A stretch of 35,360 nt of DNA, taken from positions 1 through 35,360 of the forward strand of contig JAUZQQ010000041.1 in NCBI GenBank assembly GCA_030950905.1. The letters are read 5' to 3'. Of this stretch, positions 12,995 through 34,339 are shown one piece after another (the first letter of the stretch is position 1; each line of letters opens with the position of its first letter). The DNA comes from Mariprofundaceae bacterium. GTDB taxonomy: Bacteria > Pseudomonadota > Zetaproteobacteria > Mariprofundales > Mariprofundaceae. The position numbers were made by a program, and so were the translations under genes. Below the pieces are notes generated by a model. It saw only the letters and a program-made list of their open reading frames with translations. It did no database searches and was not told where the DNA came from.

Positions 12995-15556
12995 ATGGCG
13001 CAAGTTGAAACACAAAAAAGTCGTTGGTTATCGATTTTTGGTAGCCGAAGTGTTAAACAGAAAATTTTACTTTCGGGTATTGCATTGGCCATTTTACCCG
13101 TGTTGGCATCTAACTTTTTCTTGGCTTCTCGTGCCACAAAAGACGGTTCAACAATGGCCACAATACAGGTTAAGGCACTGCTTAGTGCGGTGCGTGATAC
13201 CAAAAAAACACAGATTGAAGATTTTTACAACGGCGTAAAAAGCAACTTGATGAGTCTTGCTGGTTCATCGGGCATTCTTTCTGCAAGCAAAACATTCATG
13301 GACGGCATTGCTGATTATGAAATGGAACCACTGCCAAGCAACACCATGACTAATATACGTGAGCGTTTGCGGCAGTATTACAGTACAGACTTTGCAGCCG
13401 AATATGCCCGTAAGAATCCGGGTGCAAAGACGCTTGATACGGACAGTATGGTTGATCAATTGGACAATACGGCAGTATGGATGCAATACCAATACATTGC
13501 CAAAAACCCCAATCCTTTGGGGCAAAAAAACCGATTATCGCGCCCCCTATCAGATGATGCCTTGTACCATGATGTACATTCCAATGAGCATGAAAACCTT
13601 CGTTACATGGTGGATAATTTTAATTATTACGATGTGTTTATTGTGGATATTGCAAGCGATCGTATTATTTACAGTGATTTTAAAGAGCTTGATTTTGGTA
13701 CGCGCTTAATCGGTGGTTATTTGGAAAACAGTGGCATCGCCAAATTGTATGCTAAAATGAAAAAAGCAGGCAATGGCGCAGGGTTTATGGCGCAACCCTT
13801 TTCACAGTATTTGCCTTCTTACAATGCCTTGGCAAGTTTTGTGGCAGCCCCTATTATTGATGAGGGCGGTCAGTTGATTGCCGTATTGATGGTACAATTG
13901 TCAGACACTGCGATCAGTCGTGTATTAACCAATAATAACCAATGGCAAGACATTGGCTTGGGCAAAACAGGTGAGGCTTATTTGGTGGCAGAAAATGGTA
14001 TTCTGGTATCAAATATACGCCCCATTATTGAAAATAAAGAAACATTTATTGAAGATGCCAAACGTGCTGGAATCAATGAGCAAGAAATAACACAAATGAA
14101 CAGCAGTGGTTCGGCCTTTGGTGTATTAAGTTTTGAATCTGAATCAAAACGCTTGGCATTATCCACTGACTCAGGCGTGCGTGAAGACATGAATTACTTG
14201 AATCAATCGGTATTATCAGCCTATGGTCTGGTGACGGTTTATGGTTTAAAATGGATTATTTTGGCACAAATGAACACCGAAGAAGCCCTAGCACCCGTGA
14301 CCGCGTTGGAAGACTCGTTGCAAAAAGCATCATGGACGGTGGCAATACTGGTGTTAATTGCAGCCTTGGGCTTGGCATTGGTATTTGCCCGTATTTTGAC
14401 AACCCCATTATCAAGCATTGAAGCATCGGTACGCCGTTTGGCGGCAGGCGACTTTACAGCCCGCTGTAATATGAACACAGGTGATGAGTTTCAATCGTTG
14501 GGGGATGCGATTGATCACTTGGTCAGTGAGCGCGCCGACTTTTTGAGTTCAGAAGAGGCCTCTGAATTATTAAATGAACATATCATTCAGGTGCTTGATG
14601 CGGTGGCCGAGCTTAGTCAACGTAACCTTACCGTAAATGTGCCAGTAACCGAAGATATTATTGGCCCTGTTGCCGATGCATTGAATCTGATGACCGAAGA
14701 AACCTCTGAAGTACTAAAAGAAGTGCGCGAGGTCGCACAATACGTTGACCAGAGTTCCAATCGCTTGGAGCAATTGGCATCAGATGTAAATACGCTTGCC
14801 GAGTCAGAGAGTGCCGGTGTACAAAACATGGCCGAAAAATTGATGCAAGAATCAAAAACACAAACGACCATTGCATCGATCGCAGAAACCAGTAACACCA
14901 CCGCACAGTTGGCGAGCAAACGTGTGCAAGAAGCCCGTGAAACTGTGGGTAAAACAGCTTCTGGTATGCATGATATTCGCGAGATTATTCATGAAACAGA
15001 AAAGCGGATCAAACGCCTAGGCGAACGCTCACAAGAAATTAGCAGTATTACCGATATCATCAATACCATTGCAGAACGTACCCATGTGCTTTCTATTAAT
15101 GCCAGCATGCAGGCAGCAGCGGCGGGCGAAGCGGGTAAAGGTTTCTCGGTGGTGGCTGAAGAAGTCCAACGCTTGGCTGAAAGTTCGCGTAATGCAACAG
15201 CACAGATCGCCACCTTGGTAAAAAATATTCAGATCGAAACAGTGGATGCATCAGAGACCATGGCACGTACCATTGAGCAGGTGGTAGCCGGCTCACAACT
15301 TGCTGATGATGCAGGTAAAATCATGGAAGAATCGCGAGATATTACGGCGCAGTTGGCCGAGATGGTCAACAATATTGCCCTGATGGCTGAGAACCAAGCC
15401 ACAGCAGGTAAAGCTCTGCGTGAGGATGCAGAAGACCTTCGTAATACCACAGAACAAACAGCGAAAAAAATCATTGAGCAAAATGCAGAAACGGAGAAGC
15501 TGGCAAATTATTCCACCCAACTGCGTGATTCGGTGGGATCCTTTAAGCTGGATTAG
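12995..15556 (+). CDS. Methyl-accepting chemotaxis protein with large periplasmic sensor (PilJ position)
   Basis: Two TM segments flanking a ~400 aa sensor (dCache-like impression), HAMP (LTTPLSSIEASVRRLAAGDFTAR), signalling tip IAERTHVLSINASMQAAAAGEAGKGFSVVAEEVQRLAESS. Confidence 0.9.
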   Translation: MAQVETQKSRWLSIFGSRSVKQKILLSGIALAILPVLASNFFLASRATKDGSTMATIQVKALLSAVRDTKKTQIEDFYNGVKSNLMSLAGSSGILSASKTFMDGIADYEMEPLPSNTMTNIRERLRQYYSTDFAAEYARKNPGAKTLDTDSMVDQLDNTAVWMQYQYIAKNPNPLGQKNRLSRPLSDDALYHDVHSNEHENLRYMVDNFNYYDVFIVDIASDRIIYSDFKELDFGTRLIGGYLENSGIAKLYAKMKKAGNGAGFMAQPFSQYLPSYNALASFVAAPIIDEGGQLIAVLMVQLSDTAISRVLTNNNQWQDIGLGKTGEAYLVAENGILVSNIRPIIENKETFIEDAKRAGINEQEITQMNSSGSAFGVLSFESESKRLALSTDSGVREDMNYLNQSVLSAYGLVTVYGLKWIILAQMNTEEALAPVTALEDSLQKASWTVAILVLIAALGLALVFARILTTPLSSIEASVRRLAAGDFTARCNMNTGDEFQSLGDAIDHLVSERADFLSSEEASELLNEHIIQVLDAVAELSQRNLTVNVPVTEDIIGPVADALNLMTEETSEVLKEVREVAQYVDQSSNRLEQLASDVNTLAESESAGVQNMAEKLMQESKTQTTIASIAETSNTTAQLASKRVQEARETVGKTASGMHDIREIIHETEKRIKRLGERSQEISSITDIINTIAERTHVLSINASMQAAAAGEAGKGFSVVAEEVQRLAESSRNATAQIATLVKNIQIETVDASETMARTIEQVVAGSQLADDAGKIMEESRDITAQLAEMVNNIALMAENQATAGKALREDAEDLRNTTEQTAKKIIEQNAETEKLANYSTQLRDSVGSFKLD

Positions 15557-15558
15557 CC

Positions 15559-18500
15559 ATGAATTCTGCGTTGCATCAGTTCGGGGAACGCCTAGGCGAG
15601 TGGTTGCCGACATGTATGGAAGAATACAGCAAAATCATTGATGAAAATGATAGTGAAGATGCTGCACATCAAGCCTTGTGTGGCTATTGGCTGGATCTTC
15701 TTGATGGCAATGAAATGTCTGATTCGCTGGTGGTACAACTGTTGGCCGATCATGTGCAGCAAAATGTTGAAACATGGTTGACCGAAAGTATGGTCGCGCA
15801 CGAAGAAATCCATCAGGTCGGATCACTGATGCTGGGCTGGGTTCAACTTGTATGCAATGTATTGCATGCGCCAGATGATGAAGAATCATTGACCTCGTTG
15901 ATGGACTTGCTGATGGATGATTGTTGGGCAGTGCCTTTGTCTGATGAATCATTAGAGGCATTGGTGATGACATTGGCATCGGAAGCCGTTGAGACAGAAG
16001 AGACTGTTGAAGCAGAAGAGACCGAAGTGCCCAATGAAAAAAACCCCTGCGACACCGTCACCGTTAATAATGATAAAACTGCTGCACTTGATGCCGTAGC
16101 AGCATCAGCGGTGGATGAAAAAGAATCAGATATTGATGTTGATAGTTGGACCAGCGACGATGATCATGAAACGTTGGATGCCTTCAAAGAAGAAATGGCT
16201 ATCTTGCTGGATGACATTGGCAGCGCACAAGAATTACTAACGATGCCTGATGCCTCGCATAGCTTGTTCTTTAAAATCCGTGATGCTTGGGACGAGGCGA
16301 ATCAATTGGCCACCCAAATGGCAGAGATGTTAGGCTTTGATACGCTAGAGGCGGCTTGCCTTGGTTTTGGTGCGCATTTATCAACGATGGATCCAGAATC
16401 CATGGATGAGGCTATGCAGTGGGCGGAACGGGTTGACGCTTGGATGATGTTGTTTAAAAGCACCTTGGAAGGAACCGTTGATGTTGCATCGTGTGCGGCC
16501 GATGATTTGGTAGAATTTGTTTGCGATGAATCATTGTGGCAGATCGAAAAAGACGCCGGGTCAACAAAGGTCATAACCGAGCAAGCCTGCGATGCCGATG
16601 TCTCATTAAGGCCTGAAACCGATGTGCATCCTGAACTTTTGCAGGCGTTTTTTCAAGAATCAGAAGATCATGCTGCCAATTTTTCCGCTGCGATTCAACG
16701 CATGTATGCAGGTCAATGCGAGCAAGAATTATTGGCCACCACCCAGCGTGTTGCCCATACCCTTAAAGGTGCAGCCAATACCACTGGCTTTCGTGGCATT
16801 GCGACACTTACCCACCGTGCCGAAGATCTTCTGGAATACCTTTATCAACACAAGTTAACACCACCGCAAGCTTTATTGACGGTGTTGATGGATGTTGCCG
16901 ATTGTTTGGAAGTGATGGTTGAACATATTCAAGGCCGTGCCGATGCACCAGCGGATGCAATCCAAGTGCTTCAACAATTGATGAATTGGCATGCTTTGAT
17001 GAAAAGTGGTGAATTGCGGAACAACCCTGACGCTGTAGCCGCAGCACCTGAGCTTGCCCCCCCTGCCAAAGTTGCAAGCGAAGGTATTGCAGAAACCACT
17101 GAAGTGGTACATGCTGAAGCTGATAGCGAACAAGTGATGGCTGAATCATTGCGTGTGCCTATGACTTTGGTTGATAGCCTAATGCGGGATGTGGGTGAAA
17201 TAACCATTTTAATGGGGCAGATGCGCAAGCAATTTTCCAGCCTTATTGATCAGGCGCATGGCTTGGCGGCGCAGGAGTTTTCTGCCTACCAATACGGCAT
17301 TGAGCTGGATGTTTTGATGTCAGCACGGGGCATGGCCTTGGTGCGTGGTACCCATGACGCTACGCCAGCAAGCACAAAAAAAGATAGCCACAGTGGTTTT
17401 GACCCTTTAGAGATGGATCAATACAACGAATTACACAGTGGTTTGAGCCGCTTGTTGGAGTCGGTTTCTGATTCACGAAGCATGGCAGGCAGCATGCAAA
17501 CCAGTTTAGAAGGTATGGATGCCATGTTGCACCAGCATAACCGCCTGCATGGTGAGCTGCAAGACAACATTTTGCAGACCAGAATGACCCCCTTTGTCAA
17601 CATGGAAATGCGCTTGCAGCGTGTGGTACGACAAACCACACGCAAAACGGGTAAACGGGCTGATTTATTGTGCAGTGGTATGGAATTAATGATGGATACC
17701 GATGTGTTAAACAAATTGGCGGATCCATTGATGCATATTTTACGTAATGCCGTTGATCACGGAATAGAAAGCACTGAAGACCGCATCGCCAAAGGCAAGC
17801 CTGAATCGGGTCTGATTCATTTAAATGTATCACATCTTGGTGCGGATATTTTAATCACCTGCATTGATGATGGGCGGGGCTTGGATTACGATGCCATTAA
17901 AGCCACAGCGATTAAAAAAGGCATGTTAAGCGAGGCACAAGAAGCAACGAACGATGAATTGGCACGCATGACCATGTTACCTGGTTTCACCACCCGCGAA
18001 AAAGCGACACAGGTTTCAGGTCGTGGTTTTGGCATGGATATTGTGTTTCAAGCCATCGCACAGGTCAAAGGTCGGGTGGAATTATCAGCTGCGCCCAATG
18101 GTGGTTTGCAAGTGAGTTTGCACTTACCCATCACCTTAATGACGGTGCATTCTATTTTGGTAGAGTCACAAAAGCAGCGTTATGCACTTCCTTCGCGTGA
18201 TGTATTGCGTGTGTTAAATATCGGTGATGGTGTATTGCAACGCTTGGGCGAAGAAAATGGCTTTGCCTTTGAAGGAAAAGTATACCCACTTCATGATTTG
18301 GCTGCATTGTTGTGGGGGCAACAAGAACATATTACGGCAGAGTTTTTCGCCCGTCACACGCCGCTTATTGTGCGTGCCGATGCAGGTGAGCACGTTGTTT
18401 TGGTGGAACATATCCACGCTTGCCATGAATTAATTGTCAAAAGCATGGGGCGTTATGTACCGCATGTTCATGGTATTTCTGGCGGCAGTATTTTGAACGA

Positions 18501-18990
18501 CAGTAGCATTGCCAGTGTTTTGGATGTGGCTGAAATTCTTCGTCAAACGAACAGAAAAGCAGCCCGAACCCGTCATATTGTCGCCGAAGAAAGTCGTTAT
18601 GCCGAAGATGAAGCAAAAGAAGTGACGGTAATGATTGTTGATGACTCTCTTAGTGTTCGCCGCACCTTGTCCCGTTTGATGCAAGATGAGGGCTACCGCA
18701 CTGTATTGGCAATTGATGGGGTGGAGGCAATCAGTAAAATTGAGCAAGAAATACCTGATATTATGCTGCTTGATTTGGAATTGCCACGCATGAATGGCTT
18801 AGAGCTAGCGGCTTACTTGCGCAGACAAGAATCAACATTAAAGCTACCCATCATCATGATTACTTCACGCGCTACCCAAAAACATCGCGATCGGGCAAAA
18901 CAAGCAGGGGTGAATCACTACCTTATAAAACCCTATCAAGAAGATGATGTGCTGGAGAGCATTGAACGCTTACTTGGCACAGGCAACTAA
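15559..18990 (+). CDS. Hybrid CheA-type histidine kinase (ChpA-like): Hpt-HATPase-CheW-REC
   Basis: AHTLKGAANTTG (Hpt His), LRNAVDHGIES, DDGRGLDYDAIK, GRGFGMDIV, CheW-like region, C-terminal VMIVDDSLSVRRTLSRL...MLLDLELPRMNG...YLIKPYQ. Confidence 0.93.
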   Translation: MNSALHQFGERLGEWLPTCMEEYSKIIDENDSEDAAHQALCGYWLDLLDGNEMSDSLVVQLLADHVQQNVETWLTESMVAHEEIHQVGSLMLGWVQLVCNVLHAPDDEESLTSLMDLLMDDCWAVPLSDESLEALVMTLASEAVETEETVEAEETEVPNEKNPCDTVTVNNDKTAALDAVAASAVDEKESDIDVDSWTSDDDHETLDAFKEEMAILLDDIGSAQELLTMPDASHSLFFKIRDAWDEANQLATQMAEMLGFDTLEAACLGFGAHLSTMDPESMDEAMQWAERVDAWMMLFKSTLEGTVDVASCAADDLVEFVCDESLWQIEKDAGSTKVITEQACDADVSLRPETDVHPELLQAFFQESEDHAANFSAAIQRMYAGQCEQELLATTQRVAHTLKGAANTTGFRGIATLTHRAEDLLEYLYQHKLTPPQALLTVLMDVADCLEVMVEHIQGRADAPADAIQVLQQLMNWHALMKSGELRNNPDAVAAAPELAPPAKVASEGIAETTEVVHAEADSEQVMAESLRVPMTLVDSLMRDVGEITILMGQMRKQFSSLIDQAHGLAAQEFSAYQYGIELDVLMSARGMALVRGTHDATPASTKKDSHSGFDPLEMDQYNELHSGLSRLLESVSDSRSMAGSMQTSLEGMDAMLHQHNRLHGELQDNILQTRMTPFVNMEMRLQRVVRQTTRKTGKRADLLCSGMELMMDTDVLNKLADPLMHILRNAVDHGIESTEDRIAKGKPESGLIHLNVSHLGADILITCIDDGRGLDYDAIKATAIKKGMLSEAQEATNDELARMTMLPGFTTREKATQVSGRGFGMDIVFQAIAQVKGRVELSAAPNGGLQVSLHLPITLMTVHSILVESQKQRYALPSRDVLRVLNIGDGVLQRLGEENGFAFEGKVYPLHDLAALLWGQQEHITAEFFARHTPLIVRADAGEHVVLVEHIHACHELIVKSMGRYVPHVHGISGGSILNDSSIASVLDVAEILRQTNRKAARTRHIVAEESRYAEDEAKEVTVMIVDDSLSVRRTLSRLMQDEGYRTVLAIDGVEAISKIEQEIPDIMLLDLELPRMNGLELAAYLRRQESTLKLPIIMITSRATQKHRDRAKQAGVNHYLIKPYQEDDVLESIERLLGTGN

Positions 18991-19427
18991 TGCAGCTTTC
19001 AAGCATTGGTTATATGATCATGGGTATAGCCGAATTTCGCTTTTTTCTTGCGCAAGAAGATATGGTTGCGGCAATGGGTGTGGCAGATGTTGATATTCAA
19101 GAAAATAAAGACCTTGATACCCAAGGAAATCATTCTATCCATCATGTTGGCCATGATTACCCCCTTCGATTGATGCCAACATCAATGAAAATGAACGCCA
19201 ATGACGTGCGCTATTATGTATTATTGCAAATAAAAGGGCAGCGATTTGGGCTGGCAGCGAATCATTTATCGTTTGTTCCATTGCACCATACTATTCGTTT
19301 TTCTGAAGTGCCTGTTTGCATGCGTATGAAATTTACTTGTGTCCTCGATGTGTCTTTTCATGACGATGGTTTGTTGTGCGCCAGTTCTGCAGAAGTATTG
19401 TATGCCGTATCGCAGGCCATGGTATGA
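18990..19427 (+). CDS. Short, divergent CheW-like protein
   Basis: YYVLLQIKGQRFGLAANHLSFVPLHHTIRFSEVP resembles a CheW start; overlaps the kinase stop codon, in operon. Confidence 0.5.
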   Translation: MQLSSIGYMIMGIAEFRFFLAQEDMVAAMGVADVDIQENKDLDTQGNHSIHHVGHDYPLRLMPTSMKMNANDVRYYVLLQIKGQRFGLAANHLSFVPLHHTIRFSEVPVCMRMKFTCVLDVSFHDDGLLCASSAEVLYAVSQAMV

Positions 19428-19900
19428 GTGCCACCGCATGGCTACTTACCTTGGCGGATGGCAGCCGCGTCGCTTTAGGAAGCCATTGGATCCGCGAGGT
19501 TATTGGTGAACACGAACGCGGATTGTCGCCGATGTTTTCTGTCCCTTTAATGCCTGATTACTGCCATCAATTGATGCATTGGCGCAACCTATTTATTCCC
19601 GTTTTACACCTTGAACCCCTCGTGGGCATCACAGTGTTGGCATTGGGTCATTACTATGTGGTGGTGGCTTACCCACCATTAGAAGAAAAAGCGCACTTGC
19701 ATTATGGCGTTATTGTTTGCAGTGCGCTGCCCATGCAAATCACCATTTCAGATGCTGATCCTGTTGCCTACTCATCGCCCATCTGGGAAAACTACGCGTC
19801 ATCATGTTTTACCTATGAGGGTGATGCAATGCCTATCCTTGATACGGCCAAAGTGTTTCATTACCACGGATCGAACAATGAGCCGCCACGCCCGAGCTGA
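19424..19900 (+). CDS. CheW-like protein (ChpC-like position)
   Basis: WLLTLADGSRVALGSHWIREVIGEHE...PDYCHQLMHWRNLFIPVLHLEPL: CheW-type core; ATGA overlap with the preceding gene. Start placed inside the longer listed ORF. Confidence 0.6.
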   Translation: MSATAWLLTLADGSRVALGSHWIREVIGEHERGLSPMFSVPLMPDYCHQLMHWRNLFIPVLHLEPLVGITVLALGHYYVVVAYPPLEEKAHLHYGVIVCSALPMQITISDADPVAYSSPIWENYASSCFTYEGDAMPILDTAKVFHYHGSNNEPPRPS

Positions 19901-22616
19901 ACCACCCCATCAAACAAACACACGCCTAACCACTTGCTTGCCATTGTTCAAGCGGTTGATGCATCGACTTCCTAAAACAGCGCAAGATAGCGTCATCCAA
20001 GCACCAAAGACTGCTGTTTTACCCACGTTTGATTGGCTGCCAAAGCAACAAGACGAACTGGATGTTGATAGCTGCCAACGTCATTTGCGCTATTACAAAC
20101 AATGGGGCTTGTGCCATTTTATATGGTGGGAGCTGGGTTTGCATGGCGACCCTGTAACATCGTGGCAAAGTATTTCAGCATTGGCCGACAGTTTGATCGC
20201 AGAGGCTTTGCGAATGGCAAAGCTTTTGATCGCCCCCCGTTTTGGTCATATTGCAGATGCCTCATTTTGTATCATCGCCTTGGGGAAATTGGGCGGATGC
20301 GAACTTAACATGGGTTCTGATGTGGATTTATTGTTTGTCTGGCGTGCCAATGGCAACAGCCAAGGCGGGCGCAAGTCGCTGCCTGCCGCTGAATACTATG
20401 CGCAATTATCACGGATGTTCATTCGCCTGATGGATGAGCATACATCAGACGGTCAAGTTTGGCCTGTAGACATGCGTTTGCGCCCTGGCGGCGCAAGTGC
20501 CGCTATTGCTTTGAGCTTGGATGCAAGCTTGGGGCATTATTTGGATTATGGTCAAACATGGGAACGGGCAATGTTGATCAAAGCACGTTCTGTGGCTGGG
20601 GATATGGCCTTGGGTGCGTCTTTTCTTGAAGGTTTGTTGCCTTTTAAATTTCGTCGTTATTTGGATTTCACCACGGTGACAGCCTTGGCAGAGATGAAAC
20701 GGCGCATTGACCAAGAACAGCATATAACCATGCCTGATGTTGGCTTTGATGTGAAAAAAGGGTATGGAGGGATTCGTGAAATTGAATTTACCGTACAAGC
20801 CTTACAATTATTGCATGGTGCTCGCAATGATCTGTTACGCCATCAAAGAAATACATTAAATACCTTAGAAATATTAAAAGAGCAATCTATTGTACCCGCA
20901 GAAGAAGCCAATACTTTACGCTTGGGTTATATTTTTTGGCGGCGTATTGAACATGCTATTCAGGCTCAACATGGTGAGCAAACGCAACGAATGCCTGCTG
21001 ATTATGCGACATGGATGCCTAACTTGTTGGCCATTGATGGATTCAATGCGCAAATGCACAAACATGCTGAACAAATTCACACTATTTTTGCAGAACGCTT
21101 GTTACCATCGTCGCCATTAAATACAGACAACGGGATTCAATGCTTGCAAGGTAAAGCATGCCTACAAAATCAAACGGAAGAAAACAAAACAGCGATGCAG
21201 CAAAGCTTGCAGCGTATTCGGCAACATTTGCGCCGTGGTTTATTGCCTGAGCGCAGTGGTGCGCAAGTGGCGCGTATTTTACAGTATGTCATGCCTTTAT
21301 GGGTCAAAGATGACCATGGTGTTCAAGCCTTGGATGCATTTGCCGATCTGATCCATGCCATTGGTGGTCGTGCAACATGGATTGATCTGCTGGACACCCA
21401 CCGTGGAACGCTGACGTGGTTGGTGGGCGTGTTGTCAGCCAGTCGTTATGTTGCCGCCCATATTGTACGTGATCCTTCATGGCTTGAATGGCCACTTTAC
21501 CATGAACGTGGTGCAGTTGAAGTCTCACGTTTGTGTGCGGATCTCAACAGCTTGGATGTAAGCACCATGGCCGATGAACAGTTTTTGGCAGCACTGGGGC
21601 ATGGGGTGGATCATGTTCGATTGCATAGCGCGTTGGCGATTGATGCCCATGAACAAGACGCATTGCAGATTGGCATTTGGTTATCTGATATTGCAGATGC
21701 TGCAACAGCAGCGTGTATTCGTTACAGCCTTGAACGCCTTGGACTGCCCCATGACTTTCCGTTCGTGGCCTTGGCGATGGGTAAACATGGTAGTCAAGAA
21801 ATGGGCTTGGTATCAGATTTGGATATGGTGTTTGTCTTGGTTGCTGATCATGACCGTGCTATGCTGGGTGAGCGTAACCTTCGTGATTGGGCGCAACGCT
21901 TGGGTCGCCGTGTTATTCAAAGTCTAACCAGCCAGCCCCCCTTTGGTGCAGGTTATGAATTTGACGCGCGTTTGCGGCCTTCGGGGCAAAGTGGTGTGTT
22001 GGTTATTGGCATGAAAGCATTTGAAGACTACCAACGGCATCGTGCCGATACATGGGAGCATCAAGCACTGTGCCGTGCACGCACCGTAGCAGGGCCTAAA
22101 CAAGCGCAGCAATATTTAACCGATTGTGTGCAAGGAATACTTGTTCAGCCAAGGGTTCAAGGTGACCTGGTTAAAGATATCCTTGCCATGCGGCAAAAAA
22201 TACTGACCCACCTTGGCTCGCATGAAGCCAATACAATCAATCTAAAACATGATCAAGGTGGCATGGTTGATATTGAGTTTTTAGCACAATGGTCAAGGCT
22301 GGCTTTTGGTGGTACTAGCCAAGGAACCATTGCAACACTGCGCCATCCACCCCCTACTGCACCAGCCGCATGGTTGATCGATGCCGCGATGTTGGCCGCG
22401 CATTATTTGTCTTACCGCGAATTAGAAAATACATTGCGCGTTGAGTTATGGCAGTCTATCGGGCATCTTCCCGATGAAATAAATCATTCAGAATGGAAAA
22501 CACTGGCACGCCATTGTGTTATTCAATCACCACACATGCTTCAGGCTGTCATGGTTCAAGTACACCAATGTTTCACACGATGGTTGCAAGCTGATTCAGC
22601 TCAAGCCTCTATGTGA
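19878..22616 (+). CDS. glnE: Bifunctional glutamine synthetase adenylyltransferase/deadenylyltransferase
   Basis: ALGKLGGCELNMGSDVDLLFVW and ALAMGKHGSQEMGLVSDLDMVFV (two nucleotidyltransferase G-S-D-x-D sites), GYGGIREIEFTVQALQLLHG, GGMVDIEFLAQWSRL. Start MSRHARAEPP, overlapping the upstream gene. Confidence 0.95.
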   Translation: MSRHARAEPPHQTNTRLTTCLPLFKRLMHRLPKTAQDSVIQAPKTAVLPTFDWLPKQQDELDVDSCQRHLRYYKQWGLCHFIWWELGLHGDPVTSWQSISALADSLIAEALRMAKLLIAPRFGHIADASFCIIALGKLGGCELNMGSDVDLLFVWRANGNSQGGRKSLPAAEYYAQLSRMFIRLMDEHTSDGQVWPVDMRLRPGGASAAIALSLDASLGHYLDYGQTWERAMLIKARSVAGDMALGASFLEGLLPFKFRRYLDFTTVTALAEMKRRIDQEQHITMPDVGFDVKKGYGGIREIEFTVQALQLLHGARNDLLRHQRNTLNTLEILKEQSIVPAEEANTLRLGYIFWRRIEHAIQAQHGEQTQRMPADYATWMPNLLAIDGFNAQMHKHAEQIHTIFAERLLPSSPLNTDNGIQCLQGKACLQNQTEENKTAMQQSLQRIRQHLRRGLLPERSGAQVARILQYVMPLWVKDDHGVQALDAFADLIHAIGGRATWIDLLDTHRGTLTWLVGVLSASRYVAAHIVRDPSWLEWPLYHERGAVEVSRLCADLNSLDVSTMADEQFLAALGHGVDHVRLHSALAIDAHEQDALQIGIWLSDIADAATAACIRYSLERLGLPHDFPFVALAMGKHGSQEMGLVSDLDMVFVLVADHDRAMLGERNLRDWAQRLGRRVIQSLTSQPPFGAGYEFDARLRPSGQSGVLVIGMKAFEDYQRHRADTWEHQALCRARTVAGPKQAQQYLTDCVQGILVQPRVQGDLVKDILAMRQKILTHLGSHEANTINLKHDQGGMVDIEFLAQWSRLAFGGTSQGTIATLRHPPPTAPAAWLIDAAMLAAHYLSYRELENTLRVELWQSIGHLPDEINHSEWKTLARHCVIQSPHMLQAVMVQVHQCFTRWLQADSAQASM

Positions 22617-29494: not shown

Positions 29495-29659
29495 TTAGAT
29501 TTGGCGATCCTTGTATGTGCCACAATGACCGCATGCATGGTGCGAACGAACGGCTTCGCCACAATTGGTGCATATTTGAACATTTGCCATGGTCAAACCA
29601 TCATGCGCACGACGCATATTACGTTTGGATTTACTGGTTTTTCTCTTAGGAACTGCCAT
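29495..29659 (-). CDS. rpmF: 50S ribosomal protein L32 (54 aa, missing from the ORF track)
   Basis: Hand translation MAVPKRKTSKSKRNMRRAHDGLTMANVQICTNCGEAVRSHHACGHCGTYKDRQI, with CxxC...CxxC zinc ribbon. Confidence 0.95.
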   Translation of the reverse strand: MAVPKRKTSKSKRNMRRAHDGLTMANVQICTNCGEAVRSHHACGHCGTYKDRQI

Positions 29660-29993: not shown

Positions 29994-32801
29994 CTACCCT
30001 TTAAGGTAATCCACCAGGTTTTTTATTTTAAGTTCAAACCACGCTTTCTTGTGAAAACCAGTGCGCCCTTCATATTTTCTTGAATCAAAGAATAGACGAT
30101 CTAAAATAAGTAGCTCGTAAATATTGACCCAACGCCCATTTTTACGAATGGAAACGTCAGGATTAATAATATACTGCCCTCGCTTTGTTCGTTTAAAGAT
30201 TTTTCTATTGTAGAGCGCTGTTCCTTGACATTCGTTTTTTGATAACATACTGGAAATATAGGTTTGTTTTTTGCGGTAGTGAGGCAGCACACTATCAGGG
30301 AAGGTTTTAAGCATCGCCGTTAATCCTGCTGCATTAAACGCATGTTCACGATGAACCCATGCTTGAGGAATACTGCGATAGAAACTCGCAATCATTATAT
30401 TTAACAAGACAAACTCCATGGTGCGACGCAGCAGCTTCAGCAGGCGACCATCCACCTGCAATGTGATTTCTGCAGGAGCCAGCAGCCCGTAAACTTCAGG
30501 CAAAGAGCGTTTGGCAAACTTTTCATCCACACAGGCCTGTTCCAATGCGATCTGAAACGCATTGAAGCCATTGTTGTTACAAAGCTCGGTGTCTGCACCG
30601 ATTTCGCACAGCTTTTCTACCAAATCCGCATTGCCGAAACGAGCCGCCAACATCAGCGGTGTATGGTTGAATAGGTCACGGAAATCCACACCATATTCAT
30701 CAACCTTACGCATGATGTTGCTGGTGTTTTTAAAGGTGTACAGGGTGAAATATTTTCGGTTGAGTAGATCCAACCCCTTGCCAATGTTTTTAGCGGGTGT
30801 AAAACCAGAGCATTCAAGTTTATTCAGCCGTTTGAGATCATGATGCACCAGTGCATATTCAAAAAGGGGTAATTTTGCTTTTTTATTGCCTTGGGTGAGT
30901 GCCAAGTCATCCAGTTGGGTCAGCGCTTCACCCACCAGCGGTTTCCAATTAATCTTCTTCTGCTTTAAAATTCTACTGCGGATTTCATCAGCTTGATCGG
31001 TTTTACCCTGAAGCTCAAGCTTGCGTGCTTCTTCCCGCCACTCTTCAAAGCAGGAGTTTTGCTCGGCCATTTTCAGAGAAATTTGGGCATCATGCAAGCC
31101 CATCAATGTAAGAATCGGGTGCTCAGGCTCCTTTTCGATCAAATAAAGGTTTTTAATAGCCCTTGTGATGGCAACATAAAAGGCATTGATATGGAATTTA
31201 TAAATTTCCAATGATTTATCACTTTTATCTTTGACCCGAGCAAAAGTCAGCTGATCCACATGCAGATCATCCACATGCACGCCCTCGGCAATGGTGGCAA
31301 ACCGTTTAAGATCGGAAGCAACAAAGTTGTAGAGGATAATATTTTCATATTCCAATCCTTTTGCCTCCTGTACAGAAAAAACCAGTGGTGTACTGAAATG
31401 TTTGCGTGCCTGATCCTTTAGCTCATCGCGCATGACAATAATAGCAAAACGGGTGGAATGACGGGTTTTTTTCTCCAACTCCAGCTTGATCTGTTCCCTA
31501 TCCTGCAAAAAGCAGATGTTTCCACGGTTGTGGGCATTGCTTTTAACCAAGTAATTGCTCTCTTTGTCGATAGAACCGAAGCGGGCATTTTTTAGCTTAA
31601 GCAGACGATTGGCTACCTCGGTGACTTCTGGTGAATTGCGGTAGTTGGTATTAAGGACAGTAATTAATTCACGGGGTTGTGCGCTAGTCTGATGGTGTTG
31701 CTGATGGAAAAAGCTTTTAATTTTCGACCATGAAAAAAAATTAGGGTGCACAATTTGATTCGAATCACCACAGATAATAAATTCACCCGCTTGGTTTAGC
31801 GATTTAAGTATCAGTGCAAGCTGTACGCTCGTGATGTCTTGCACTTCATCAATAATAATAAAGTCGTAACATGGCTGAACACGCTCAGCGTAGTGATGGC
31901 AGATAATATTGCTGTCGTACAACGTCTCTTTGTCAATAAAACGATGATAGCTTTCAAAGAGATTGTATACCTCTTCGCGTTCATTCTGCTGAAAAATAGA
32001 TTGCTTGATGCCCAATTGCAGGTATTCATCCCGACTCAACCAGCCTTTATCGCTCATTGTGCCCGTGATCACCCCCTTAAATTCCTCCACCAACTTGTGT
32101 GCATCGTTTAAGCTTCGACTTTTACGCGTCTGCGCAAACCAGCGATTAAAGTCTTGAAAGTTCACTTCACGACCAGATGGAATATGGATGGATTCGAGAA
32201 ACTCTTGAAAGGAGAAAAAGTCCACCTGCTGATCTTCATTGTCGTAACGCAGGCTGTAGTAGATATCACGCGAATTCTTTACCAAATAAGGGGAGTGGGT
32301 GACATAGAGTACATCCCCAATGGCGTGTTTCATCTTCTCCAACGTCAACGCCGTTTTACCACTTCCCGCCGAGCCGATGATGATCACCGGAGGATTTAAG
32401 GCATAGACCGAATGTTGCGTTGAATCAAATGAAATAACCTTATCTAAAATGTTAAAAGTATGACTTTTCTCATTGAGGTAAACCAGTGATTCAGGTTCTT
32501 CATCCAGTTCGTCAATGCTTGCTATTTTGCTCTCATCAATGCTTGCCCCGTGTTCTAAAAAGCGTGATTTTTCGTAGGCATGGTTAGCAATAAACTCCAA
32601 AATGAGTGCGTACCGCTGCCCATCATGTTGGTAGATGGAGAACAAAAGCCGATGATGAATATCCAGCCTACTGCGATAAAGGTTGGGGCCAACTTTCTTC
32701 ACATCAGCAGATTTAAAATCATCAGCCTCAAGCAGAGCTTTCATTTTGGCGAACCCAGGAATTTTTTTGACATTCAATTCGTTGTAGAGCAGTACTTTCA
32801 T
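29994..32801 (-). CDS. Multidomain protein: N-terminal RelE/ParE-like segment, SF1 (UvrD/Rep-type) helicase, ankyrin repeats, uncharacterised C-terminus
   Basis: Walker A GSAGSGKTAL, Walker B IIIDEVQDITSVQ, CGDSNQIVHP, NTNYRNSPEVTEVA, SVQEAKGLEYENIILYNF, AFYVAITRAIKNLYLIE; ankyrin-like NHTPLMLAARFGNADLVEKLCEIGADTELCNNNGFNAFQIALE. Listed 951 aa ORF begins at a TTG (32849); first ATG is at 32801. Confidence 0.85.
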   Translation of the reverse strand: MKVLLYNELNVKKIPGFAKMKALLEADDFKSADVKKVGPNLYRSRLDIHHRLLFSIYQHDGQRYALILEFIANHAYEKSRFLEHGASIDESKIASIDELDEEPESLVYLNEKSHTFNILDKVISFDSTQHSVYALNPPVIIIGSAGSGKTALTLEKMKHAIGDVLYVTHSPYLVKNSRDIYYSLRYDNEDQQVDFFSFQEFLESIHIPSGREVNFQDFNRWFAQTRKSRSLNDAHKLVEEFKGVITGTMSDKGWLSRDEYLQLGIKQSIFQQNEREEVYNLFESYHRFIDKETLYDSNIICHHYAERVQPCYDFIIIDEVQDITSVQLALILKSLNQAGEFIICGDSNQIVHPNFFSWSKIKSFFHQQHHQTSAQPRELITVLNTNYRNSPEVTEVANRLLKLKNARFGSIDKESNYLVKSNAHNRGNICFLQDREQIKLELEKKTRHSTRFAIIVMRDELKDQARKHFSTPLVFSVQEAKGLEYENIILYNFVASDLKRFATIAEGVHVDDLHVDQLTFARVKDKSDKSLEIYKFHINAFYVAITRAIKNLYLIEKEPEHPILTLMGLHDAQISLKMAEQNSCFEEWREEARKLELQGKTDQADEIRSRILKQKKINWKPLVGEALTQLDDLALTQGNKKAKLPLFEYALVHHDLKRLNKLECSGFTPAKNIGKGLDLLNRKYFTLYTFKNTSNIMRKVDEYGVDFRDLFNHTPLMLAARFGNADLVEKLCEIGADTELCNNNGFNAFQIALEQACVDEKFAKRSLPEVYGLLAPAEITLQVDGRLLKLLRRTMEFVLLNIMIASFYRSIPQAWVHREHAFNAAGLTAMLKTFPDSVLPHYRKKQTYISSMLSKNECQGTALYNRKIFKRTKRGQYIINPDVSIRKNGRWVNIYELLILDRLFFDSRKYEGRTGFHKKAWFELKIKNLVDYLKG

Positions 32802-32830
32802 GGGCGATACCGTACCATTATTTTCCTTGA

Positions 32831-33475
32831 TTACACTTTGTTCTTGCAATCTACGGGGTGTCCCGTCTTAAACAGGAAGTCTTTTAATGTCAGCCAAGCA
32901 GCCAAACATAAACCACTGACCAAGCCAAAGGCATGGGCTTGCCAAACGACATGAAAGGACGTTTCATTGCCGCTAAAAATAGAGATATGAGCTGCCTCTA
33001 GGATTATTTTTAATACGCTTAATAAAAACAATAAAACAACAATCAATCGCAGCTTAAAATTATCGCTCGTCGCTATGACATCGCACAAGGTATAGATCCA
33101 CAATGCCATGATAAAACCCGATAGACCAGCGAAGTATTCCAGCTTTGGTAGGCAGTGAAAAATATAAACCGTCGTTAGCAGTGTTGATGTGCAGTATAAA
33201 AAAAGAAGGTGTGATCGTTTGCGTCGTTCAAGCAATAGCATAAGCGGCCATGCCAATGATAGATTCAGCAAAAGATGTTGCCATGAGAAATGAATCAATG
33301 GCGCAGTCAAAAGTCGCCACCATTGATCTTCGTATATCAACAATGAGCGTTGATAAATCAACCCTGATGCAGGCCATTCCAGTGCATAAAACAACAGCAC
33401 TAAAACGAGCATCATGCTACTTAGAAGTCTATCCAAGAAGAGCACGCGTAGCGAGGTGTTTTTATTTTTCATCAT
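32831..33475 (-). CDS. Rhomboid-family intramembrane protease, rhombosortase-like
   Basis: Multi-TM; APLIHFSWQHLLLNLSLAW, catalytic-type FAGLSGFIMAL and VVWQAHAFGLVSGL. Confidence 0.82.
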   Translation of the reverse strand: MMKNKNTSLRVLFLDRLLSSMMLVLVLLFYALEWPASGLIYQRSLLIYEDQWWRLLTAPLIHFSWQHLLLNLSLAWPLMLLLERRKRSHLLFLYCTSTLLTTVYIFHCLPKLEYFAGLSGFIMALWIYTLCDVIATSDNFKLRLIVVLLFLLSVLKIILEAAHISIFSGNETSFHVVWQAHAFGLVSGLCLAAWLTLKDFLFKTGHPVDCKNKV

Positions 33476-33520
33476 GATTTTTAGCGTGTGAGGGGAATTA
33501 CCTTATTACGAATCTATGTA

Positions 33521-34339
33521 TTACGCATTGTCATGACGCTTTCGCCAAAACACCCCCATCAGTCCGATCAACAACAGCATATTAAACCAACCCATTGCAC
33601 CACCACCATAACCACTGCGATGTTCAACGCGATATTCTTTGGGCGAGGTCTTCACTTTTTCTCGAAACGCTTGTAATTTTTTATCCAAAGCAACAATCAA
33701 ATCCGCGCTTGCCTCTGTAAAACCTGTTTGAGCATCTTTACGCAGTTGCTCGCTTAAATTAATCGGCGTTGCAGTGCTATGAATATGACTTACGCCAGGT
33801 GCTCTAAATAACATTTTGTGGCTGACAACATCGTAAACAGCTGCATCCACCATGGTGTGGGTATCGTTTTTTTCACCGGGGACTATATAGGCTCCAATCA
33901 AGGTCCAGTAGGTTATGGAAGCGAGACCTTCACCCGTAAATCGTGATTGATCATAGGATAGCAGTACAATTACATCCAAACCAAACATCGTCGCCATTTG
34001 ATCGACATTGGCAAAACTTCCTTTGGGTTGTAAATAAGCACTGGGAATAATTTCGATGTTTTTAACAAATTTATATTGAGAAAAATGCTTTTTAACGGTC
34101 TGCATGAGGCGGACTTTGCGTTCTTCATTGATGGCTTTTATACTGCCAGCATCATCGGGGACAAAAGCAATGCCTACGCGCAGTGGAAGGGGTAAATAGG
34201 GTATTTCTGGCACCTCTATAGGTTGTGCTTGCTTGGGGTATAAATATTTAACGACGCTGCTGCTGTAATGATCGCTGCGATTGGTTACACAAGCAGTGCT
34301 TACTCCCAACACCAGTAGTGCACATAAAATAATTCTCAT
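33521..34339 (-). CDS. Lipoprotein with GlyGly-CTERM-like C-terminus (candidate rhombosortase target)
   Basis: N-terminus MRIILCALLVLGVSTAC (lipobox); C-terminus GYGGGAMGWFNMLLLIGLMGVFWRKRHDNA: Gly-rich motif, TM, basic tail. Confidence 0.8.
   Translation of the reverse strand: MRIILCALLVLGVSTACVTNRSDHYSSSVVKYLYPKQAQPIEVPEIPYLPLPLRVGIAFVPDDAGSIKAINEERKVRLMQTVKKHFSQYKFVKNIEIIPSAYLQPKGSFANVDQMATMFGLDVIVLLSYDQSRFTGEGLASITYWTLIGAYIVPGEKNDTHTMVDAAVYDVVSHKMLFRAPGVSHIHSTATPINLSEQLRKDAQTGFTEASADLIVALDKKLQAFREKVKTSPKEYRVEHRSGYGGGAMGWFNMLLLIGLMGVFWRKRHDNA

What the first reader, a model, noticed from the sequence alone, without database searches (positions are those of the whole stretch)
29994..32849. 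Large fusion of a RelE/ParE-like N-terminal segment, SF1 helicase and ankyrin repeats
Directly visible: complete SF1 motif set from ~aa 159 (Walker A) to ~aa 565, plus an ankyrin-like stretch at ~aa 727-770. The first ~85 aa after the ATG (KVLLYNELNVKKIPGFAKMKALLEADDF...LYRSRLDIHHRLLFSIYQHDGQRYALILEFIANHAYEKSRFL) read like a RelE/ParE toxin-type fold. Established: SF1 helicases and RelE-family toxins each occur in defence or conflict systems. Inference: this could be a single-gene defence/conflict protein in which the helicase or ankyrin part controls a toxin-like RNase or mRNA-interacting domain. It sits alone among housekeeping genes.
Basis: partly seen in the sequence, partly recalled or inferred. 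Interest (0 to 1): 0.78.

Follow-up and report, generated by a model that had tools for sequence, protein, structure and literature searches.

The report
Mobile toxin-fold, helicase and ankyrin protein
A single travelling bacterial gene joins a domain shaped like an mRNA-cutting toxin to a DNA/RNA-unwinding motor and a protein-binding tail; it has moved between distant bacteria and might be a one-gene defence system, but nobody has tested what it does.

Summary
The ORF is real and intact; its start is most likely the ATG at 32801 (935 aa). It has a YoeB/RelE-fold N-terminal domain, a complete UvrD-type SF1 helicase, one clear ankyrin repeat and a conserved unnamed C-terminal domain. R51, H74 and Y76, at or near the positions of YoeB Arg65, His83 and Tyr84, are invariant in 14 family members from two phyla. 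The gene is mobile: its nearest relative (90%) is in another family while the same-genus copy is 66% identical; seven Zetaproteobacterial copies sit in seven places; others lie on plasmids and in CP4-like islands (2% of E. coli genomes). No antitoxin or partner is conserved. RelE-like/SF1-helicase fusions recur elsewhere with TPRs or no repeats, so this is an ankyrin-bearing variant of a recurrent, uncharacterised architecture. Defence is plausible but not shown: no known defence genes beside it, no known system matches. Best guess: a self-gated, ribosome-dependent mRNase used in conflict (about 0.4).

The parts
29994..32801 (-). whole gene, 935 aa, likely ATG start at 32801 (stop 29994-29996)
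   Evidence: homologues in Zeta-, Alpha- and Gammaproteobacteria and Thermus align from this Met
32556..32801 (-). N-terminal YoeB/RelE-fold domain (aa 1-82), beta-alpha-beta-beta-beta-beta
   Evidence: AlphaFold2 pLDDT 81; Foldseek PDB top 17 hits are RelE-superfamily or RelE-like; weak profile match to YoeB
32649..32651 (-). R51 codon, aligned with YoeB Arg65 (transition state)
   Evidence: invariant in 14 members; aligned; YoeB role from PMC3814384
32580..32582 (-). H74 codon, aligned with YoeB His83 (general acid), to within a residue or two
   Evidence: invariant in 14 members; a His is present here also in L016, L017, L099
31122..32393 (-). SF1 (UvrD-type) helicase core, aa 137-560
   Evidence: Pfam UvrD-helicase, UvrD_C, AAA_19, Viral_helicase1 above cut-off
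32352..32375 (-). Walker A GSAGSGKT (aa 143-150)
   Evidence: sequence; G143 and A145-T150 invariant
31836..31850 (-). Walker B DEVQD (aa 318-322)
   Evidence: sequence; D318, E319, Q321, D322 invariant
31158..31175 (-). motif VI VAITRA (aa 543-548)
   Evidence: sequence; invariant except the Ile
30966..31055 (-). helical linker W588...G599..Q603 (aa 583-612); more distant relatives have TPR matches after their helicase core
   Evidence: invariant positions; TPR_2 matches in L016 and L017
30534..30695 (-). ankyrin repeat region (aa 703-756), one clear repeat
   Evidence: Ank_2 28.4 bits (cut-off 27.3), Ank 23.5 (cut-off 21.1)
30117..30491 (-). conserved C-terminal domain (aa 771-895), motif Y-N-R-K-I-F-K-R-x-x-R-G-x-Y-x-x-N
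   Evidence: conserved to Thermus and Methylosinus; no significant Pfam or PDB match

Best explanation
A solitary, horizontally mobile conflict protein. Inferred mechanism: an ATP-driven SF1 motor binds a cue (for example unusual DNA/RNA ends, or a phage product caught by the ankyrin/C-terminal part) and releases the N-terminal YoeB/RelE-like domain, which docks in the ribosomal A site and cuts mRNA, stopping translation. Shown here: intact gene, domains, YoeB-like predicted fold, retained catalytic-type residues, selection on all domains, mobility, absence of a conserved antitoxin. Inferred: RNase activity, the gating, the cue and the defence role.
For: Fold: pLDDT 81; ranks 1-17 all RelE-superfamily or RelE-like; 6n90 YoeB/ParE E=1e-3; Sa2YoeB 7v5y TM 0.57/0.65, rmsd 2.6, 24% id. 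Sequence: a profile of this and related NTDs scores 21 YoeB toxins 5.8-18.8 bits, the best shuffled decoys of 3000 scoring 15.1 and then 8.4; NTDs of related helicases hit Pfam HigB-like at E=2.3e-4 and 0.0024, below the curated cut-off. Active site: R51, H74, Y76 invariant; R45 (Lys in Thermus) six residues before R51, as Arg59 before Arg65 in YoeB. Helicase motifs intact. Mobility: helicase 90% identical to G039 of another family while PlsX is 56%, and 66% to same-genus G003 while PlsX is 76%; different neighbours in every Zeta copy; plasmids; CP4-like islands, 111/5426 E. coli genomes with a match, some copies broken by IS or frameshift.
Against: The YoeB general base Glu46 is not clearly conserved (A32 invariant, D33 variable). 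No adjacent known defence gene; PADLOC scores are generic. No phage-challenge or toxicity data. Housekeeping neighbours in Zetaproteobacteria do not themselves point to defence. A RelE-like fold can be a non-catalytic ribosome or nucleic-acid binder.
Confidence: 0.4

Rival explanations
1. Nucleic-acid or ribosome-associated helicase in which the RelE fold is only a binding module (to ribosome, RNA or DNA), used in repair, R-loop removal or rescue of stalled complexes; accessory and mobile but not a toxin.
For: RelE-like N-termini recur on otherwise different SF1 helicases (L016, L017, L099-L101, L103), as expected for a helicase accessory domain; Glu46 equivalent not conserved; the gene is tolerated without an antitoxin.
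Against: H74, R51 and Y76 are absolutely conserved, which a mere binder need not keep; patchy, transferable distribution is unusual for repair genes.
Confidence: 0.3
2. Cargo that helps the mobile element itself: plasmid or island maintenance, or competition with other elements (the cell does not benefit directly).
For: Present on plasmids (Shigella/E. coli, Piscirickettsia, Methylosinus, Thermus) and in CP4-like islands next to replication, AlpA and antirestriction genes.
Against: Zetaproteobacterial copies are single genes in chromosomal housekeeping surroundings with no element seen around them, yet under strong purifying selection.
Confidence: 0.17
3. Interaction factor for eukaryotic hosts (ankyrin protein exported into host cells).
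For: Copies on Shigella and Piscirickettsia plasmids; ankyrin domains are frequent in effectors (general knowledge).
Against: Present in free-living deep-sea iron oxidisers, Thermus and Methylosinus; a large ATP-dependent helicase; only one clear ankyrin repeat.
Confidence: 0.04

Closest known systems
YoeB/RelE (type II toxin-antitoxin) mRNases
   Same: Predicted fold of the N-terminal domain; positions of Arg59, Arg65 and His83/Tyr84 (the last two within a residue or two)
   Different: Fused to about 850 aa of helicase, ankyrin and C-terminal domain; no antitoxin gene; longer beta hairpin; Glu46 not clearly kept; activity untested
UvrD/Rep/PcrA SF1 helicases
   Same: All catalytic motifs
   Different: 20-31 bits against equivalog cut-offs of 911-1168; extra N- and C-terminal domains
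RelE-like + SF1 helicase proteins with TPRs or no repeats (e.g. Crinalium WP_015205634.1, Cetobacterium WP_240220137.1, L099-L101, L103)
   Same: Same order, RelE-like domain then SF1 helicase; the Arg and His positions kept
   Different: TPR or nothing in place of ankyrin plus the conserved C-terminal domain; similarity to the window protein is confined to the helicase
Gabija GajB
   Same: UvrD-like SF1 helicase used in defence (39 bits)
   Different: No GajA nuclease beside it; RelE-like and ankyrin domains are not part of the GajB models
Proteins annotated 'UvrD-helicase / ankyrin repeat domain-containing protein' in E. coli and on Shigella virulence plasmids
   Same: Same family, 43-44% identity over about 96% of the length
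   Different: Nothing in kind; no reported function found

Membership tests
RelE/YoeB toxin domain superfamily | RelE-type alpha/beta fold | tested here: met
   predicted structure and PDB fold search
RelE/YoeB toxin domain superfamily | Passes a curated sequence model (Pfam YoeB/ParE/HigB) | tested here: not met
   no such Pfam hit in 11 members; only distant relatives give hits, below cut-off
RelE/YoeB toxin domain superfamily | Catalytic residues (YoeB Glu46, Arg59/Arg65, His83/Tyr84) | tested here: inconclusive
   R51, H74, Y76 invariant, R45 nearly so; Glu46 equivalent uncertain
RelE/YoeB toxin domain superfamily | Ribosome-dependent mRNA cleavage | not testable with these tools
   needs biochemistry
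Type II toxin-antitoxin system | Adjacent antitoxin gene conserved with the toxin | tested here: not met
   different neighbours in window, L006-L008, L118-L120, L014, L015; an upstream 150-190-aa gene is shared only among the E. coli copies
SF1 UvrD-type helicase | Motifs I to VI present and conserved | tested here: met
Ankyrin-repeat protein | Ank model above curated cut-off | tested here: met
Gabija | GajA OLD-family nuclease next to GajB | tested here: not met
   no such gene seen in the neighbourhoods read
MZA system (MzaA) | MzaA equivalog score above 800 | tested here: not met
   32 bits, ankyrin part only
Anti-phage defence gene | Co-location with known defence genes | tested here: inconclusive
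   mobile islands and plasmids; ten neighbours scanned, one hit (Rpn-like, C3a178)
Anti-phage defence gene | Protection against phage | not testable with these tools
   needs plaque assays

The most novel reading that the evidence does not exclude
A one-gene immune protein in which an SF1 helicase motor, informed by an ankyrin/C-terminal sensor, directly gates an in-cis YoeB-like ribosome-dependent mRNase, replacing the antitoxin of a classical toxin-antitoxin pair, and spread by horizontal transfer between phyla from Thermus to E. coli.
Probability: 0.3. Interest if true: 0.78.

Novelty: new variant of a known kind. Interest (0 to 1): 0.52.

Why it matters
It is a testable example of a toxin-fold nuclease apparently held in check within its own polypeptide by a motor domain, and it puts a function hypothesis on a gene family that sits on Shigella and E. 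coli plasmids and islands but, in the papers searched here, has no described function.

Tried and rejected
Sequence-only proof of the RelE link: profile-profile comparison with a mixed ParE set gave nothing; with YoeB only P about 0.003-0.006 for a single comparison, in the expected register. Full-length AlphaFold with 4 sequences was poor (pLDDT 38.5), so the helicase, ankyrin and C-terminal domain were not fold-searched. The viral structure library gave no good match for the N-terminal domain. A viral-contig search with the N-terminal profile found nothing; phage records hold only a distant helicase. Megablast of the IMG/VR copy against E. coli found nothing, the sensitive mode found 111 genomes. 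A conserved partner gene was looked for and not found. GC content of the gene (0.43) is near that of its flanks (0.42-0.44), so composition does not mark it as foreign. TRANK1, an animal protein with ankyrin, TPR and UvrD-like parts, is a lead from memory only and was not tested; no paper linking it was found.

Full report
What is there. The window is a contig of a Zetaproteobacterial metagenome-assembled genome (1.6 Mb in 114 contigs, 82% complete), with relatives among Mariprofundales MAGs. The ORF at 29994-32849 on the minus strand is open for 951 codons from a TTG. Homologues align from the ATG at 32801, so the protein is most likely 935 aa; numbers below use that frame. It is a single copy: the only other hit in the genome is noise.

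Domains. Pfam places UvrD/AAA_19/Viral_helicase1 and Ank models above their cut-offs. The SF1 motifs, Walker A GSAGSGKT 143-150, Walker B DEVQD 318-322, R388, the KGLE motif V (481-484) and the motif VI core, are kept across 14 full-length family members. The ankyrin part is one clear repeat with weaker flanks (703-756). A conserved C-terminal domain (771-895) has no significant Pfam or PDB match. All domains are under purifying selection against the 90% homologue (dN/dS 0.05-0.15), except the last 40 residues, which are variable (0.42).

N-terminal domain. No RelE-type Pfam family and no PDB sequence matches it. A 101-residue AlphaFold2 model from five sequences has mean pLDDT 81 and pTM 0.73, though only two of the five models were confident (81.0 and 78.5, the others 54-61). 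Against the PDB its first 17 matches are all RelE-superfamily toxins or a RelE-like toxin fold: Agrobacterium YoeB/ParE (E=1e-3), S. aureus Sa2YoeB (TM 0.57/0.65, rmsd 2.6, 24% identity), YafQ, E. coli YoeB, HP0892, RelE, and part of Txp40. Sequence agrees weakly: a profile of this domain together with those of related helicases ranks YoeB toxins above nearly all of 3000 shuffled decoys, although one decoy reached 15.1 bits and the profile of this family alone does not separate well. The N-terminal regions of related helicases hit Pfam HigB-like toxin at E=0.00023-0.022, below the curated cut-off. In the YoeB-ribosome structure the catalytic or substrate-contacting residues are Glu46, Arg59, Glu63, Arg65, His83 and Tyr84 (PMC3814384). 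Here the segment Y42-R-S-R-L-D-I-H-H-R51 aligns without gaps to the YoeB segment ending in Arg65, placing R45 on Arg59 and R51 on Arg65, and H74/Y76 fall at the end of the last strand as His83/Tyr84 do. R51, H74 and Y76 are invariant in all 14 members; the Arg and a His are present also in the more distant Crinalium, Cetobacterium and proteobacterial helicases. The Glu46 equivalent is uncertain. So the fold claim is well supported and the catalytic claim is plausible.

Relatives and mobility. In the first 61 genomes 4 carry it, and in 399 genomes of the phylum 9 do, all of them in the window's own family or order. The closest homologue (90%) is in a different family of the same order (G039), while the same-genus copy (G003) is 66%; the housekeeping neighbour PlsX shows the opposite, 56% and 76%. 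A tree groups the window with the G039 copy at full support. Neighbours differ in every Zetaproteobacterial copy read: after rhombosortase and before rpmF-plsX (window), beside an IstB gene and rsmB-like/carA-like genes (L006), after a tadA-like gene (L007), after a cysteine-cluster protein (L008), after a HemJ-like gene (L118), near suf genes and an Rpn-like fragment (L119), after a type II secretion operon (L120) (gene names here are my reading of the translations). In two same-genus relatives, G002 and G003, a gene of the YceD type stands directly before rpmF; YceD was not found in the incomplete window genome. Outside the class: Methylosinus pOB3b2 (41.6%), Thermus pTA78 (39.8%), Piscirickettsia plasmids (42.8%), and Shigella and E. 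coli plasmids (43-44%). An IMG/VR contig holds a 44% homologue next to what reads as a Mu-like prophage end and CP4-57-type island genes (AlpA, DUF3987, antirestriction). Sensitive search with that copy finds matches in 111 of 5426 E. coli genomes, mostly chromosomal; the examples read lie in CP4-like islands with inovirus Gp2-type, YagK/YfjJ, GTPase, CdiA, Rpn nuclease or fimbrial cargo, and some are broken by frameshift or IS66.

Is it defence? PADLOC gives only generic helicase scores for the protein (best 44 bits to a DRT helicase, 39 to GajB), and ten neighbours yielded one hit, the Rpn-like protein. No antitoxin or other partner is conserved across lineages. The mobile, accessory and occasionally broken pattern is what conflict genes show, but also what other cargo shows.

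How general is the architecture? Crinalium and Cetobacterium proteins have a RelE-like N-terminus by alignment, the SF1 helicase and TPR matches, and a group in other Pseudomonadota has a HigB-like N-terminus and SF1 helicase. So a RelE-like domain in front of an SF1 helicase is a recurrent design; the version with ankyrin plus the conserved C-terminal domain is one family within it. No paper found describes its function; absence from this open-access library does not prove that none exists.

Conclusion. Shigella/EIEC plasmid neighbourhoods were deliberately not fetched.

Noticed in passing
window 32831-34339 (-): Rhombosortase (TIGR03902, 97.9 bits) next to a rhombotarget lipoprotein (TIGR04179, 314.6 bits), a known protease-substrate pair.
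   Followed up: partly
window 29495-29659 (-) and its upstream side: rpmF-plsX-fabH-fabD lacks the yceD-type gene that precedes rpmF in G002 and G003; YceD (PF02620) is not found in the 82% complete genome, and the helicase gene occupies that side. Insertion, rearrangement or incomplete assembly cannot be told apart.
   Followed up: partly
L099, L100, L101, L103 (other Pseudomonadota): A second RelE/HigB-like plus SF1 helicase family with a conserved HHD..Y motif, unlike the window family in its C-terminus.
   Followed up: partly
G000 contigs C41, C9, C83, C6: The same genome carries free-standing YoeB and ParE toxin genes.
   Followed up: no
L022, L025, L027 (E. coli): In part of the E. coli copies an Rpn-family nuclease gene lies about 60 bp downstream of the helicase gene.
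   Followed up: no
window 12995-22616 (+): Three very large neighbouring ORFs (853, 1143, 970 aa), not examined.
   Followed up: no
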